From NCBI RefSeq assembly GCF_015350795.1, contig NZ_JADKSH010000001.1:124461-188460 (forward strand): DNA of 64,000 bases, in the 5' to 3' direction. Both the position numbers and the translations under genes were made by a program. Below are positions 34,770-39,279 of this stretch, piece by piece. The DNA comes from Microbacterium sp. VKM Ac-2870 (GTDB lineage Bacteria > Actinomycetota > Actinomycetes > Actinomycetales > Microbacteriaceae). Under the pieces are notes generated by a model, which saw nothing but the letters and a program-made list of their open reading frames with translations, had not been told where the DNA came from and did not search any database. Each line of letters opens with the position of its first letter. Within the stretch, counting starts at the first letter, position 1.

Positions 34770-36338
34770 TCACCGTCGGCGCGAGCCCGCAGGGACGATC
34801 ACCGTGAGCGCGCGCGGCAGGACGCGAGCCGTCAGATGGTCGACCTCCTCACCGAGCTCGCCGTCACGGGCGATGCGATATGGGCCCTCAGGCAGTTCGA
34901 GCTGGAACTCGGCATCCGAGTACTGCTGATAGCGGCGATTGCGCGAGATGCGCCCGGTAAACAGATCGACCACCACGCGGGCGCGCGAACCGCGGCGCGA
35001 TACCCCCAGCACTCGCAGGTCGAGTCGGGCATCATCCAGAGTGGCCCGGTGCACCGGCGCGAAGCCACGCGGCTCGTAGCGCCCGTTGCCGAGGAAGAGC
35101 AGGCTGAAACGGGCATCGATCGTCTCGCCGTCGAGGTCCTTGACGCGCACGTGCACCGCACGGGCCTGTCGGAGCGTACGGGCCGCGGCGACCACAGCGG
35201 CCAGCGGCTTGCCGATGCGATGCTCGTAGTGCTCACGGATCGCGACGAAGTCCGTGTACGCACCGACGCTGGCGGTGTTCACGAAGATCTTGCCGTTGAT
35301 CTCGCCGAGGTCGACCGTGGCCACCGTCCCCGCACGGATCGCATCGATCGCGGTCGCCAGCGGGAACATCCCCAGATCCTTTGCGAAGTGGTTGAACGTT
35401 CCCGCAGGCAGGACCGCCAGCGGGATGCCGTTCTCGCGTGCGGCGCTGGCGGCCTGCTGAACAGTGCCGTCGCCGCCGGCGACGGCGAGCACCTCGCAGG
35501 ACGAGGCCGCGTCTCGGATTGTGCCGGCGTGGTCATCATCGTCGCCGAGGGCAACGATGCGCATCCGCGGGAGCGCGCGACGCACGTCGGGGAGGATGCG
35601 GCCGGCGCGACCCGACCCGGAGCGAGGATTGATGATGAGGGTGATGCCCTCACCGTGCGGCCTCGGCGTTCCCGCGTGCACGGCGAGAGCATCCTGCAGC
35701 GGGTTGACGCGCTCCACAGGAACCAGCCGCGTCGTCAACCACGCGATCATCTCGCCGAGGGCGAACCCGGCTGCCACGTCGGTGGGGTAGTGCGCACCGG
35801 TGGCGACACGGGAGAACCCCACGAGGCCCGCAAGCGCGCGAAGCGGCACAGTCAGGGCCGGCAGCTCCGCAGATGCCGCGGCTGCGAAGGCCACGGCGCT
35901 GGCCGAGTGTCCGCTGGGAAAGGACGTCGACGTCGGAATGCGGTGGGCCAGGCGCTGAACGGGGACCTGGGTCAGCGACGGCCGGGGGCGGCGATGAACG
36001 CGCTTGGACACCTGGTTGGCGATGAGGCTCGTCACCGCGATCGCGGCCAGTCCTCGTCCGGCCGCGCGGCGCGCGCGTGGCCGTCCTGACAAGGCCAGCA
36101 GACCCGCGATCGAGATCCACAGCACCGAACGGTCGGCGGCCCGCGTCAACGGCGGCATGGTCGCATCGAGGAGCGGGCTGCGCGTGCGGGCGATGGCCGT
36201 GAAGGTCGCCACGTCGAGGTCGTCGAGCTGGCGCCGCGCTCCGCGCCGCTGGCGCTGGCGCTGCGATGAGGTTTCGGCGGGCTCGGCGGAGCGGCGAGAG
36301 GGACGCGGTCGGCGACGTGACACGGGGGATCCGATCAT
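34770..36338 (-). CDS. PAP2 phosphatase-diacylglycerol kinase fusion
   Basis: 522 residues with two domains. The N half is a PAP2 lipid phosphatase: KRVHRRPRP, PSGHSAS (141-147) and SRVATGAHYPTD (176-187). The C half is a DAGK_cat/LCB5-type lipid kinase: INPRSGSG (236-243) and GGDGTVQQ (288-295), then the LPAGTFNHFAKDLG loop. Phosphatase-kinase fusions of this type are common in actinobacteria and may turn over undecaprenyl or diacylglycerol phosphates at the membrane. The ATG overlaps the stop of the GmrSD-like gene by 4 bp, so the two are co-expressed. Confidence 0.9.
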   Translation of the reverse strand: MIGSPVSRRRPRPSRRSAEPAETSSQRQRQRRGARRQLDDLDVATFTAIARTRSPLLDATMPPLTRAADRSVLWISIAGLLALSGRPRARRAAGRGLAAIAVTSLIANQVSKRVHRRPRPSLTQVPVQRLAHRIPTSTSFPSGHSASAVAFAAAASAELPALTVPLRALAGLVGFSRVATGAHYPTDVAAGFALGEMIAWLTTRLVPVERVNPLQDALAVHAGTPRPHGEGITLIINPRSGSGRAGRILPDVRRALPRMRIVALGDDDDHAGTIRDAASSCEVLAVAGGDGTVQQAASAARENGIPLAVLPAGTFNHFAKDLGMFPLATAIDAIRAGTVATVDLGEINGKIFVNTASVGAYTDFVAIREHYEHRIGKPLAAVVAAARTLRQARAVHVRVKDLDGETIDARFSLLFLGNGRYEPRGFAPVHRATLDDARLDLRVLGVSRRGSRARVVVDLFTGRISRNRRYQQYSDAEFQLELPEGPYRIARDGELGEEVDHLTARVLPRALTVIVPAGSRRR

Positions 36339-38434
36339 TTCATCGCATTGCCGATGTACGAGTACTTGACGAACACCTCGGAGGCCCAACCGGCCTCGTC
36401 GAGCACGCCTTGCACCGCTGTCAGCATGTACTTGGAGTCCCAGCCCATGTAGAGGTACTGGCCGTCGCCGAGCTCGTCCCAGTGTCCGTTCCACGCCGTG
36501 GCGGGATAGACCGGTCCGCCGCGTCGCGCACTGAAGTCGATCACACTCTGACGCGAGTCGGCCCACAGACGGTGGAAGATGCGATTGAACAGGTAGCGGA
36601 TGTCCGGTACCTCCCAGTGCTCGCCGCGGAACTCGACGTAGTCGAACTCGCGCTGCCAGCCGCGCGGCCATCCGCGCCGCGCGATGGCGTCGAGGATCGG
36701 GGTGAGGTTGTCGTCGTCGATGCTGACCACGGCGGGACGCTTCCACACGGAGAGGAAGAGCGTGCTCAGATGCTGCGTCCGGGCGGTGATCGCCGCCGTG
36801 CTCCACCCGTCCAGGTCGGCAAGCGTCTGGGTGAGCTCGATATCGCTCGAGCGGTAGACCGCCTTCTTTTGCGCGAAGGACGCGTCGAAGGCGCGATCGA
36901 AGAGAGTCTGCTCCAGGAGCGTGAGATTGCCGAGCGTGGGGGCGAGGGCGCGGAAGCTGTTCTGCTCGTCCTCCGACAGTTCGCTCCAGCGCCGTACGCC
37001 GTCAGGAGACCATTCGTCGGATGGCGCCATCGGCACGATGTGCTCCACATCGAACGTCGCGGCGTCGACGTCGCCCGCCAGACGCGCGAGAACATACGGC
37101 GCGTGGGGGAGCGGGCTGTATTTGAGTCCGACGCGCGTCCGCTCGTCCGACGGCGTGATCCGGGCGATGGCACGCACGAGCGCATCGCGCGAGATCGCGG
37201 CGGCGCGGCACAGGCGCGCGACGAGCCGGTCGGTGCTGACTCCCACGACGGTGCGGCGCAGCAACAGCGACTGCAGCTTCTCGAGCGCGTCGATCAGCTC
37301 CGGCGTCGACAGTGCCGCGTCGCGATGCTCGCGCACCAGTCGCATGGTCAGGGGGTACATGCCGCGACCGAATGTGTTCAGGTAGCCGAGTTGCCGGCCG
37401 ACCGCATCCTCGGTCGCGCGCGAAGGATCCAGCAATGTGCGGTAGATCTCGGAGTGCGACCGCCACTGCGCGGCGCGTTGCCTGAGCGTGGCCAGGTCGA
37501 GGCGCGGAAACTCCGTGCGGAACGTGTCGTAGACGCCGCGTTCGCCGACGACGGTGACCTCGCGGCCGGTCAGCATCACGAGGTAGTGCCGCCAGAAGTC
37601 GCCGATCTGCTCACCGGTGTTCTGTTCGATCGGTACCCAGTACTCGTCCTCGATCTCGATCTGCTCGGAGTGCGACAGACCCATCAAGACGTAGTTGTGG
37701 ATCAGTTCGTGGTCGCGCAGTGGCTCGCCCGTGGAGTTGAGGCTCTCAAACGTCTGCTGCGCGTTCGCGTCAGGTCCCAGAGTGATCGCGACGTGTTCGA
37801 GGCGCTCCAGTCCACGCCAGATGTGGGCCGCCTCGGCCGGGCGGATCTGGCTGCGAAAGAACGCATAGTTGTCGTCGAAGCGCGACTCGCGTGTCTCGTC
37901 GCCGGGAGCGCGACGGTCGAGGACGACGCTCTCGAACACGTCTGCCCACGCGCGGTGCGGGCGCAGTTTGGTGCGCGCCGGATCGTTGGTGCGCACCAGC
38001 ACACGCTCGAGCTCGGTCGCCAGCGCCGGGTCGTCCTCCCGCAGTGTGTGGTGCAGCGCGGCAACCAGAAGCATGAGCGTGGTGATGCGCTGCTGGCCAT
38101 CGATCAGCACGAGATGCGCGTCGGAGTCCTCTGCCGATGCCGTGGAGAGGATCGAACCGATGAAGTGCGTCTGCCCGTCTGGGGCATCCGCGACCGCGCG
38201 TACGTCGCTGAGGAGTTGTTCGCATCCACCGATGTCCCAGCGGTATTGGCGCTGATAGACCGGCACGACGATGGGGGTGTCGGATGCCGAGAGCCACGCG
38301 ATCGTCGCCACGGCGGTGGCTGACACATGCGTCGCGGAGACGGACGAGGCGAAATTCGTGCCGCTGCTCATAGTGTCCGTGTCGCCTCCGGGCTCGCTGT
38401 CGATGACCGCCGTCGAGTCTAATCGCGTTCTCAT
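36335..38434 (-). CDS. GmrSD-type protein (DUF262 + DUF1524 + C-terminal domain)
   Basis: 699 residues. The N-terminal DUF262 (GmrS-like, ParB/sulfiredoxin fold) has VPVYQRQYRW (57-66) and IDGQQRITTL (111-120), then TFESLNSTGEPLRDHELI (228-245). The DUF1524 HNH-nuclease domain (GmrD-like) has VEHIVP with His465, LGNLTLLE with Asn503, and a following Lys-rich segment. A further 130-residue C-terminal domain, rich in Trp and Tyr, is not recognised. GmrSD proteins are type IV restriction enzymes that cut modified phage DNA, so this is a probable solitary defence gene. The start at 38434 follows TACAGA by 6 nt; ATG 38371 is an alternative. Confidence 0.85.
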   Translation of the reverse strand: MRTRLDSTAVIDSEPGGDTDTMSSGTNFASSVSATHVSATAVATIAWLSASDTPIVVPVYQRQYRWDIGGCEQLLSDVRAVADAPDGQTHFIGSILSTASAEDSDAHLVLIDGQQRITTLMLLVAALHHTLREDDPALATELERVLVRTNDPARTKLRPHRAWADVFESVVLDRRAPGDETRESRFDDNYAFFRSQIRPAEAAHIWRGLERLEHVAITLGPDANAQQTFESLNSTGEPLRDHELIHNYVLMGLSHSEQIEIEDEYWVPIEQNTGEQIGDFWRHYLVMLTGREVTVVGERGVYDTFRTEFPRLDLATLRQRAAQWRSHSEIYRTLLDPSRATEDAVGRQLGYLNTFGRGMYPLTMRLVREHRDAALSTPELIDALEKLQSLLLRRTVVGVSTDRLVARLCRAAAISRDALVRAIARITPSDERTRVGLKYSPLPHAPYVLARLAGDVDAATFDVEHIVPMAPSDEWSPDGVRRWSELSEDEQNSFRALAPTLGNLTLLEQTLFDRAFDASFAQKKAVYRSSDIELTQTLADLDGWSTAAITARTQHLSTLFLSVWKRPAVVSIDDDNLTPILDAIARRGWPRGWQREFDYVEFRGEHWEVPDIRYLFNRIFHRLWADSRQSVIDFSARRGGPVYPATAWNGHWDELGDGQYLYMGWDSKYMLTAVQGVLDEAGWASEVFVKYSYIGNAMK

Positions 38435-38440
38435 CGGGCC

Positions 38441-38450
38441 TCTGTAGGCT
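38441..38450. promoter_or_regulatory. Face-to-face -10 boxes sharing one TA
   Basis: TCTGTAGGCT contains TACAGA leftwards (38446-38441, toward the GmrSD-like gene, 6 nt before its ATG) and TAGGCT rightwards (38445-38450, toward the dioxygenase gene). The left box is a weaker match. Geometry is identical to 3807-3816 and 54421-54430. Confidence 0.45.
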
Positions 38451-38505
38451 GACCTAAGTCGGGCCTGTAAAAACTTCGCTTGTCCGGCAGAAAGGTTGAT
38501 CCGTC

Positions 38506-39279
38506 ATGGGTTACATCAAGAGCGCGGCTCTCGAGGAGACCGGTTACGTCGTCCTCGACCGCTACAACAAGGTGATCGATCCGAAGGAGTGGCTCGACGT
38601 CGAATACGTCGACTGGAAGTCCTCGGGCGACACCCGCTTCGCCCCTCTTGCCTCGGCGAAGGGTGAAGTCGAGTGCAACGGCTTCTGGAACCACAAGCCG
38701 CCGCGCACCGACAAGGACGGTGTCTGGATCGACTCCCAGACCGCCATCGCCCCGACCCTCACCGCGCGCGCCATGGAGCCGGGCGCGAACGTCGGCCGCT
38801 GCCGCATCATCGAGCTGCAGCCCAACACCTACGCCGACTGTCTGTACAACCTGCACCAGGATGACAACAACCGTCTGAACCCTGACGGCACCGGCTGGGT
38901 TGTGCGCGGCTTCTTCAACCTCACCGACGACGCCACGAGCTACTTCGTCCTGCGCGAAAACCGCACCGACCCCAGCGAGGAAACGCGCATCGCCCTTCCC
39001 GCCGGCGCGCAGCTCATCGTCGACACGCAGCGCCTCTGGCACGCGGCCACTCACCCCGGCGACGAGCCGCGGTACTGCCTCATCACGTCGTGGGAGTCCG
39101 GGCCTGAGCTCGACGCCTACATCGCAAAGTACAACGGCGTGAACAAGGTGGACAGCTACCCGGTCGATCAGGAGATCCTCGACGCTGGTCAGATCGAGCA
39201 GGAGCGTCGCATCGCCGCGCGTGCCGCCGCCCTCGCCGCTCGCGGCCAGCAGGAGGTCACGGTGATGAGCGAGGCCTAA
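38506..39279 (+). CDS. Putative Fe(II)/2-oxoglutarate-dependent dioxygenase
   Basis: 257 residues, not matched to a named family by me. The pattern fits the double-stranded beta-helix oxygenase site: H117-x-D119 in NLHQDDNN, a distal H179 in RLWHAATH and R189 ten residues later in DEPRYCLITSW, with GWVVRGFFNL between. This is a phytanoyl-CoA dioxygenase-like or related layout. A charged helix (QIEQERRIAARAAALAAR) ends the protein. AGAAAGG precedes the ATG. It is divergent from the GmrSD-like gene, with overlapping promoters, and ends with a strong terminator. Substrate unknown. Confidence 0.6.
   Translation: MGYIKSAALEETGYVVLDRYNKVIDPKEWLDVEYVDWKSSGDTRFAPLASAKGEVECNGFWNHKPPRTDKDGVWIDSQTAIAPTLTARAMEPGANVGRCRIIELQPNTYADCLYNLHQDDNNRLNPDGTGWVVRGFFNLTDDATSYFVLRENRTDPSEETRIALPAGAQLIVDTQRLWHAATHPGDEPRYCLITSWESGPELDAYIAKYNGVNKVDSYPVDQEILDAGQIEQERRIAARAAALAARGQQEVTVMSEA

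What the first reader, a model, noticed from the sequence alone, without database searches (positions are those of the whole stretch)
36335..38434. GmrSD-like gene with an extra C-terminal domain, coupled to a lipid phosphatase-kinase
DUF262 (IDGQQR) and DUF1524 (VEHIVP, LGNLTLLE) are joined in one protein as in single-chain GmrSD type IV restriction enzymes. A 130-residue Trp/Tyr-rich domain after the nuclease is unrecognised. The stop overlaps the start of a PAP2-DAGK gene, so a candidate defence nuclease is translated together with a membrane-lipid enzyme, with a DyP peroxidase and a HEAT-like protein further downstream on the same strand. There is no restriction cassette or mobile element around it.
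Basis: partly seen in the sequence, partly recalled or inferred. Interest (0 to 1): 0.62.

Follow-up and report, generated by a model that had tools for sequence, protein, structure and literature searches.

The report
Dead restriction enzyme paired with hydroxylase
In bacteria of the Microbacterium family, a protein that looks like a phage-cutting restriction enzyme has lost residues its cutting site needs and is instead inherited back-to-back with a probable iron-dependent hydroxylase whose gene is preceded by a conserved RNA hairpin, so it is probably a domesticated partner of that enzyme rather than an ordinary defence nuclease.

Summary
The DUF262-DUF1524 gene with a C-terminal extension is real. 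(1) The fixed partner is the divergent dioxygenase-like gene (38506-39279, +), not the lipid enzyme: in the family survey the same 37 of 249 genomes carry both; GmrSD lies divergently beside it in 76 of 80 named loci, PAP2-DAGK beside GmrSD in 8 of 80. (2) The nuclease site is degenerate. The metal-ligand Asn (GmrD N178, DndI N541) is absent in 104 of 104 distinct orthologues but present in 23 of 24 outside relatives (21 by script, two by eye). The general-base His is missing in 20 of 104, needing 10 changes on the tree, 8 forced by well-supported branches. The DUF262 NTPase motif and several aromatics of the "unrecognised" domain never vary. (3) That C-terminal domain is ancestral and, here, unusually constrained. 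(4) Ahead of the dioxygenase lie a conserved dyad and a covarying RNA hairpin without an Rfam match. Best reading: a domesticated pseudonuclease acting with a hydroxylase. Its biochemical role is inferred, not shown.

The parts
36335..38371 (-). GmrSD-like pseudonuclease, 678 aa: DUF262 (about residues 32-228), helical middle, DUF1524/HNH (437-536), C-terminal domain (about 544-678)
   Evidence: Pfam; fold matches DndI, SspE, BrxU; active-site counts; start choice
38416..38421 (-). -10-like TAGACT of the GmrSD gene
   Evidence: 77 of 122 upstream regions carry the motif, shuffles mean 2.3, max 7
38445..38457 (+). conserved dyad TAGGCTnnCCTAA ahead of the dioxygenase; DtxR/IdeR-like and also -10-like (TAGGCT), both by recalled consensus
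   Evidence: TAG[GC][CGA]TnnCCT[AT]A in 107 of 122 regions, shuffles at most 1; fixed 24-26 bases before the A-run of the hairpin loop; single exact TAGGYTNNCCTAA site in own genome
38458..38488 (+). conserved RNA hairpin in the presumed 5' UTR of the dioxygenase, loop U(U/A)AAAAC..G
   Evidence: 63 distinct sequences, 6 of 7 pairs with changes on both sides, 95.9% cells paired, 0 of 500 shuffles; fold; model R1
38506..39279 (+). Fe(II)/2-oxoglutarate dioxygenase-like protein, 257 aa; H117-x-D119, H179, R189 invariant
   Evidence: weak Asp_Arg_Hydrox in relatives; fold matches of a low-confidence model
34770..36323 (-). PAP2-DAGK lipid phosphatase/kinase: neighbour in the window's clade only, not part of the conserved module
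   Evidence: Pfam; 8 of 80 named loci; start

Best explanation
A domesticated, nuclease-degenerate GmrSD relative that works with a divergently transcribed Fe(II)/2-oxoglutarate-type hydroxylase. [quoted passage not shown] Inferred: the DUF262 part still binds NTP and DNA (or RNA), the C-terminal domain mediates the partner or ligand contact, and the protein acts as an NTP-driven sensor, regulator or substrate of the hydroxylase (of the prolyl/aspartyl hydroxylase type, possibly iron-controlled) rather than as a DNA-cutting restriction enzyme.
For: Co-occurrence: same 37 of 249 family genomes; genus survey 40 of 59 GmrSD, 39 of 59 paired-type dioxygenase, the odd one (G023) cut by a contig end. 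Adjacency: 38 of 38 genus loci with both, 76 of 80 named loci, 34 of 37 family genomes within about 2 kb (read). One clade of paired dioxygenases: SH-aLRT 95. Active site: with PMC4437046 (H508A binds but does not cut), PMC4619093 (D113 and N178 metal, H114 general base, N169 structural, all predicted), PMC11662687 (DndI N541A: nuclease activity much reduced, protection lost). DUF262 intact: P37, V38, Q40, R41 and DGQQR in 104 of 104, Y39 in 103 of 104. Selection: whole-gene dN/dS 0.04-0.16 also in His-less clades; nuclease region highest of four regions in 6 of 8 groups, C-terminal domain lowest in 6 of 8. Domain identities reversed against 5 of 5 divergent outside pairs, once by one point only. 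Hairpin.
Against: No partner contact, enzyme activity or regulation was tested. The window's own protein keeps the HNH His, and an alternative metal ligand (invariant E487) cannot be excluded, so weak nuclease activity is possible. GmrSD and dioxygenase are about 590 kb apart in one genome (G577). In two of eight groups the nuclease region is not the fastest, and in two the C-terminal domain is not the slowest. Pairwise distances of the two proteins correlate only moderately (Pearson 0.68, n 103), and shared ancestry alone would give some correlation. The pair is patchy in the genus (19 of 59 genomes lack a GmrSD orthologue), as a defence gene might be. No species-tree comparison was made, so horizontal moves within the family are not excluded.
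Confidence: 0.55

Rival explanations
1. Ordinary type IV-like defence effector: DUF262 senses NTP and modified DNA and the HNH domain, despite changes, nicks DNA; the dioxygenase is a chance or structural neighbour.
For: Fold and sequence kin are DndI, SspE, BrxU and PADLOC Orf5 (1e-74); three distant plasmid homologues lie beside DISARM drmD, a type ISP enzyme or type I genes; patchy presence; faster evolution than the dioxygenase.
Against: Metal-ligand Asn absent in 104 of 104; His missing in 20 of 104 with purifying selection continuing; same partner in 13 of 85 genera sampled; neighbours look like core metabolic genes, by appearance; phage records hold only 12 weak matches at 21-29% identity, and two IMG/VR scans gave none.
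Confidence: 0.2
2. Writer-reader system: the dioxygenase oxidises a base or another nucleic-acid group and the GmrSD-like protein reads that mark, as SspE and DndI read phosphorothioate made by associated genes.
For: SspE and DndI act with phosphorothioate-marking genes (PMC10952713 and PMC11662687 passages); strict co-occurrence; the equivalent of the PT-sensing Tyr (DndI Y25) is kept in 103 of 104.
Confidence: 0.12
3. The GmrSD-like protein is a DNA-binding transcriptional regulator of the divergent dioxygenase gene, binding the shared intergenic region.
For: Divergent regulator-target layout; Eco94GmrSD H508A still binds DNA; conserved dyad between the genes.
Against: A similar dyad also precedes several stand-alone dioxygenase genes without GmrSD beside them (rows L241, L244, L245, L247, L255), and in G577 the two genes are far apart though dyad and hairpin remain (rows L252 and L117).
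Confidence: 0.13

Closest known systems
DndI (PDB 9JFL), phosphorothioate-sensing DUF262-DUF1524 nickase
   Same: Best Foldseek match (E 6.5e-14), VIA Z 21.9 over 489 residues; DGQQR and the Tyr equivalent to Y25 kept
   Different: Equivalent of N541 is Ala/Thr/Phe/Ser/Gly in 104 of 104; no DndC match in own genome; extra C-terminal domain; partner is a dioxygenase
SspE (PDB 6JIV, 7DRS) and BrxU (PDB 7P9K/7P9M)
   Same: Same two-domain fold
   Different: Active HNH nickase or nuclease in those (PMC10952713 passages); BREX and Ssp genes were not searched for in this genome
Eco94GmrSD / E. coli CT596 GmrSD, type IV restriction
   Same: DUF262 + DUF1524, in Eco94GmrSD in one chain
   Different: Catalytic set incomplete; conserved divergent hydroxylase
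PADLOC Orf5 (PDLC02693) / HEC-06 models
   Same: Orf5 covers residues 56-564 at 1e-74
   Different: The match ends before the C-terminal domain; none of the four other neighbours scanned hit a PADLOC model
Asp_Arg_Hydrox (PF05118), proline 3-hydroxylase, PHD2 type Fe(II)/2OG hydroxylases
   Same: HxD...H...R pattern; weak Pfam matches in relatives (best 20.4 bits against cut-off 22.6); the 50 fold matches listed for a weak model are hydroxylases or dioxygenases, PHD2 mostly
   Different: Window protein itself gives no Pfam hit; substrate unknown; RNA hairpin ahead of the gene

Membership tests
GmrSD-type type IV restriction enzyme | DUF262 (GmrS) domain with (I/V)DGQQR | tested here: met
   Pfam; DGQQR in 104 of 104
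GmrSD-type type IV restriction enzyme | DUF1524 (GmrD) domain fold | tested here: met
   Pfam; fold
GmrSD-type type IV restriction enzyme | complete HNH catalytic set (D/E-H, Asn +9 metal ligand) | tested here: not met
   His kept in window and 84 of 104, Asn absent in 104 of 104; outside relatives keep it in 21 of 22 scored by script, plus two rows read by eye; L271 has no EHxxP
GmrSD-type type IV restriction enzyme | cleaves modified DNA, restricts phage | not testable with these tools
   bench assay needed
PT-sensing effector (DndI/SspE) | acts with dnd or ssp modification genes | tested here: inconclusive
   no DndC (TIGR03183) match in own genome, but the 14 control genomes have none over the cut-off either; ssp genes not searched
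PT-sensing effector (DndI/SspE) | PT-sensing Tyr in the DUF262 hydrophobic patch | tested here: met
   Y39 = DndI Y25 by the alignment; 103 of 104; the surrounding VYQR motif is also in the four outside relatives aligned
Fe(II)/2-oxoglutarate dioxygenase | HxD...H metal triad and 2OG-binding Arg | tested here: met
   H117, D119, H179, R189 invariant in A2, A5 and A8; the roles are assigned by pattern, from recall
Fe(II)/2-oxoglutarate dioxygenase | double-stranded beta-helix fold | tested here: inconclusive
   model pLDDT 45, yet the fold matches listed are of this class
Asp_Arg_Hydrox PF05118 | profile score above the curated cut-off | tested here: not met
   window protein no hit; best relative 20.4 of 22.6 bits
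DtxR/IdeR iron regulon | TTAGG...CCTAA type box bound by the repressor | tested here: inconclusive
   TAG[GC][CGA]TnnCCT[AT]A ahead of the gene in 107 of 122, but TAGGYTNNCCTAA is a single site in own genome; consensus recalled; binding not testable
known Rfam RNA family | match to one of 4227 models | tested here: not met
   window gave two tRNAs only at gathering threshold; no match at E up to 10 for 38380-38560

The most novel reading that the evidence does not exclude
A bacterial iron- or oxygen-sensing pair: the hydroxylase modifies a residue of the GmrSD-derived pseudonuclease (or of a target it presents), the DUF262 NTPase converts this into a signal on nucleic acid, and a new cis-acting RNA hairpin tunes hydroxylase synthesis; that is, a restriction enzyme recycled as a signalling protein.
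Probability: 0.2. Interest if true: 0.85.

Novelty: new variant of a known kind. Interest (0 to 1): 0.6.

Why it matters
DUF262-DUF1524 proteins are easily called defence nucleases on domain content alone. Here one bacterial family carries a version whose cutting site has decayed while its sensor and its 'unknown' C-terminal domain are the most conserved parts, in lockstep with a probable hydroxylase. That makes a testable case of a restriction enzyme turned into something else, warns that domain-based defence annotation can mislead, and yields a compact conserved RNA without an Rfam match. The hydroxylase's relatives beside translation genes (infC, rplT, pheS, pheT) offer an entry point to its substrate.

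Tried and rejected
Lipid-enzyme coupling: rejected as a general feature (8 of 80); the PAP2-DAGK, fruA and TerC queries were in a wrong frame, so counts for PAP2-DAGK are taken, where the frame was corrected and fruA and TerC were dropped.

Phage or plasmid carriage of the pair: no dioxygenase match in 50,697 phage or 72,556 plasmid records; IMG/VR scans with both alignments found no relative at that pattern-based sensitivity. Matches of the GmrSD query exist in 12 phage and 549 plasmid records, all under 60% identity.

Dioxygenase by sequence in the PDB: nothing meaningful. In VIA-align few rows reach it; by the tool's own note this says nothing about novelty.

Rows dropped: of 117 GmrSD sequences (38 genus loci, 78 named loci, window) only those of 600-730 aa entered the count of 111, of which 104 are distinct; L032 and L063 were lost to a start mis-parse (L032 is the contig of L071), L101 and L145 end at contig ends, L140 and L142 are interrupted. 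L070 (G023) had no dioxygenase on its contig and was not parsed; L326, L327, L341, L342 came later and are only read by eye. Of 142 distinct upstream rows, 122 paired-type ones entered. In one search the positions TAG..T were fixed by the anchor used, so only the dyad count with its shuffle control is used here; one search's motif count of 74 used a different pattern and is replaced. For A7, 60 of the 90 distinct hairpins were chosen for diversity and three rows that its loop pattern had missed were added; other missed rows (L044, L168, L237, L239, L248, which look like hairpin variants, and L174-L176, L243-L245, stand-alone Microbacterium-type genes without a visible hairpin) were left out, as was L246, which has the same gene as L176.

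Control for the HNH residues: 27 ORFs outside the family, several near-identical; one search listed 24 of them and scored 22 by script (21 with Asn; L258 missed through a wrong motif hit); L258 and L280 were read by eye as having it, L271 has no EHxxP; L274 is a fragment. Domain-identity control: seven outside pairs, two of them near-identical or the same gene and so uninformative.

Paper searches for prior description: DUF262+DUF1524+dioxygenase; DUF262+restriction+phosphorothioation; Microbacteriaceae+2-oxoglutarate+dioxygenase+riboswitch (3 of 4); GmrSD+inactive nuclease+DUF262 (2 of 3); dioxygenase+rplT+pheS; Microbacterium+DUF262; DUF1524+catalytically inactive: no listed title or abstract start describes this pair; some lists were capped. 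Passages only were seen of PMC4437046, PMC10952713, PMC11662687 and PMC4619093; all others only as listings.
Full report
Observation. The window is from a Microbacterium-type genome (nearest named relatives; the genome itself is unnamed). The frame 36335-38434 (-) encodes GmrSD_N and GmrSD_C domains with IDGQQR, VEHIVP and LGNLTLLE, and no library reported a family for the last 130 residues. The likely start is ATG 38371 (678 aa): aligned orthologues begin near there, and a -10-like TAGACT lies between the two candidate ATGs; it is present in 77 of 122 upstream regions against at most 7 in 200 shuffles. The ATGA overlap with the PAP2-DAGK gene is present as letters, but none of the 8 relatives that share that neighbour has it, and in L072 and L141 the next start lines up with window GTG 36323, 11 bases downstream of the stop.

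Who the partner is. In 59 Microbacterium genomes an orthologue including the C-terminal domain occurs in 40 (one cut by a contig end; a 41st genome has only a weak partial match), and the paired-type dioxygenase in 39; the one without it is that cut case. In 38 of 38 fetched genus loci that hold both, the dioxygenase lies divergently about 2.1-2.2 kb from the GmrSD stop. Of the 80 best loci of a scan of 84,980 species genomes (344 relatives found, 80 kept), 78 carry GmrSD and 76 have it divergently next door; two Herbiconiux loci have an extra stretch of about 2.6 kb between the genes, L117 lacks it within 8 kb and L150 begins at a contig edge. Many of these loci and the genus loci are the same genomes. 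In 249 family genomes from 85 genera the C-terminal domain is found in 37 genomes of 13 genera and the paired-type dioxygenase (at least 480 bits; the next match has 467) in exactly the same 37; 14 further genomes have only the stand-alone type. In 34 of the 37 the two lie within about 2 kb; G361 has an insert, G394 is split by a contig end, and in G577 they are about 590 kb apart on one contig. PAP2-DAGK is next to GmrSD in 8 of 80 loci. In the order sample (297 genomes, 94 genera) nothing else appears outside the genus except one diverged C-terminal domain, in G195, in a protein of the same architecture beside other nuclease-like genes (by appearance), with no dioxygenase match for that genome.

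Not a mobile defence cassette, as far as tested. Neighbours differ between clades: a DeoR regulator (Pfam) and fructose-type genes in the window's clade; in many other Microbacterium, genes that look like fatty-acid synthesis and pyruvate dehydrogenase (names from sequence appearance, not profile-checked). No viral contig gave either protein at the sensitivity used, and no plasmid or phage record the dioxygenase. By contrast, three distant GmrSD homologues on plasmids that were looked at sit near a type ISP enzyme, type I restriction genes or DISARM drmD.

The nuclease site. Eco94GmrSD loses cleavage in D507A, H508A and N522A, and H508A still binds DNA (PMC4437046, passages). Modelling of GmrD assigns D113 and N178 to metal, H114 as general base and N169 as structural (PMC4619093, passages); N178 is nine residues after N169. 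DndI N541A has much reduced nuclease activity and no phage protection (PMC11662687, passages); in the alignment, N541 is likewise nine residues after the LGN-type Asn and matches our position 491 (counted by hand; the same count puts DGQQR at 83-87 as in the paper). In 104 distinct orthologues the LGN Asn (482) is always present, but position 491 is Ala 84, Thr 7, Phe 6, Ser 4, Gly 3: never Asn. The deep-branching pair locus L326 also lacks it (by eye). Outside relatives keep it in 21 of 22 scored by script, plus two read by eye. The His (444) is missing in 20 of 104, replaced by eight different residues, with 10 changes on the tree, 8 forced by well-supported branches (parsimony cannot tell loss from gain, but outside relatives with a recognisable motif have His). 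The window copy keeps the His.

What is kept. DGQQR, W586, W603, Y641, W644, Y670 and Y672 are invariant in 104 of 104. dN/dS over the gene is 0.04-0.16 in eight groups, three of them His-less; the nuclease region has the highest ratio of four regions in 6 of 8 groups and the C-terminal domain the lowest in 6 of 8. Mean identity is 75.8% in the C-terminal domain and 59.3% in the nuclease; in the five divergent outside pairs the C-terminal domain is the less conserved of the two every time, once by one point only. So constraint seems to have moved from the nuclease to the NTPase and the C-terminal domain. That domain is ancestral: plasmid proteins of Rhizobium and Roseicitreum align through it at about 28% overall identity.

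The dioxygenase. H117, D119, H179 and R189 are invariant across the paired and stand-alone types aligned. The window protein has no Pfam hit; 9 of 17 alignment members touch Asp_Arg_Hydrox (best E 0.004), and of three relatives outside the family scanned one reaches 20.4 bits against a cut-off of 22.6, one is weaker and one has none. The model is poor (pLDDT 45), yet the 50 PDB matches listed are hydroxylases or dioxygenases, proline 3-hydroxylase and PHD2 first, with low TM-scores; this is supportive, not proof. In the class sample 43 of 394 genomes hold a relative, 33 of them in other orders. I fetched loci of 13 of those 33: in 10 the gene lies after infC, rplT or an RlmB/TsnR-like methyltransferase and before pheS or pheT, often with cysD and cysN between, and four have two copies in tandem; an eleventh has only the pheT side and two (L330, L338) lack the cluster (crude gene calls; names checked by NCBIfam for L340 only). 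No GmrSD match lies in these stretches. The paired type forms one supported clade, so pairing probably arose once, and a translation-linked, stand-alone hydroxylase is plausibly the older state (the root is not inferred).

Control region. Ahead of the dioxygenase, TAG[GC][CGA]TnnCCT[AT]A is found in 107 of 122 distinct paired-type regions (shuffles at most 1), at a fixed 24-26 bases from the A-run of the hairpin loop. It resembles a DtxR/IdeR box and its TAGGCT fits an actinobacterial -10 (both consensuses recalled, not from a call); the exact pattern TAGGYTNNCCTAA occurs once in the own genome, against two sites of the reversed control pattern, so membership in an iron regulon is open. Then follows a hairpin. 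On 63 distinct sequences including ten stand-alone types, 95.9% of cells pair, 6 of 7 pairs have changes on both sides, no shuffle of 500 reaches this on four measures (2 of 500 on pair types), and every slide of 1-3 columns falls to 57% or less. Single-sequence folding energy is mostly not unusual (z -0.35 to -2.8 over six sequences), so the case rests on covariation; seven rows of stand-alone genes, one gene listed twice, show no such hairpin. A covariance model, built partly from these same genomes, finds it in 39 of 59 Microbacterium genomes at E 1e-4 or better, once each and before the dioxygenase; two further matches near E 1 are treated as chance. No Rfam family matches.

Mechanism. The best-supported account is a GmrSD-derived protein that keeps an NTP-driven sensing domain and a partner- or ligand-binding C-terminal domain but no longer depends on DNA cleavage, working with a hydroxylase whose expression is set by the dyad and the RNA hairpin. 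Which way the action flows (regulator of, substrate of, or reader of the product of the hydroxylase) is not resolved by sequence. Defence by non-catalytic means, such as binding or blocking foreign DNA, remains possible and is covered by the phage test.

Noticed in passing
L328-L340 (unnamed actinobacterial genomes): Relatives of the dioxygenase sit near infC, rplT, a methyltransferase, often cysDN, and pheST in 10 of 13 loci fetched, four with tandem copies; a possible translation-linked hydroxylase.
   Followed up: partly
L236-L239 (genomes of 1.6-1.8 Mb): Small-genome Microbacteriaceae keep a stand-alone dioxygenase with the hairpin but without the dyad, convergent with a peroxidase-like gene (the gene name is by appearance).
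   Followed up: partly
L081 and L124: Contigs labelled Stenotrophomonas maltophilia P13 and Planococcus sp. APC 4015 carry the Microbacterium-type pair; the assemblies are probably contaminated or mislabelled.
   Followed up: no
L140, L142, L327: GmrSD copies broken into separate matching pieces beside a full-length dioxygenase; assembly error or decay cannot be told apart.
   Followed up: no
L102 5362-7896: In Herbiconiux sp. VKM Ac-1786 a putative TetR-type regulator and a membrane hydrolase-like gene lie between the two partners (names by appearance).
   Followed up: no
L343: Deinococcus sp. AJ005 plasmid p96k: a long DUF262-DUF1524 protein close to DISARM drmD.
   Followed up: no
window 38506-39279 and relatives: All 118 paired-type dioxygenase sequences parsed end in the same four residues MSEA, and several relatives end in SEA or PEA; role unknown.
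   Followed up: partly
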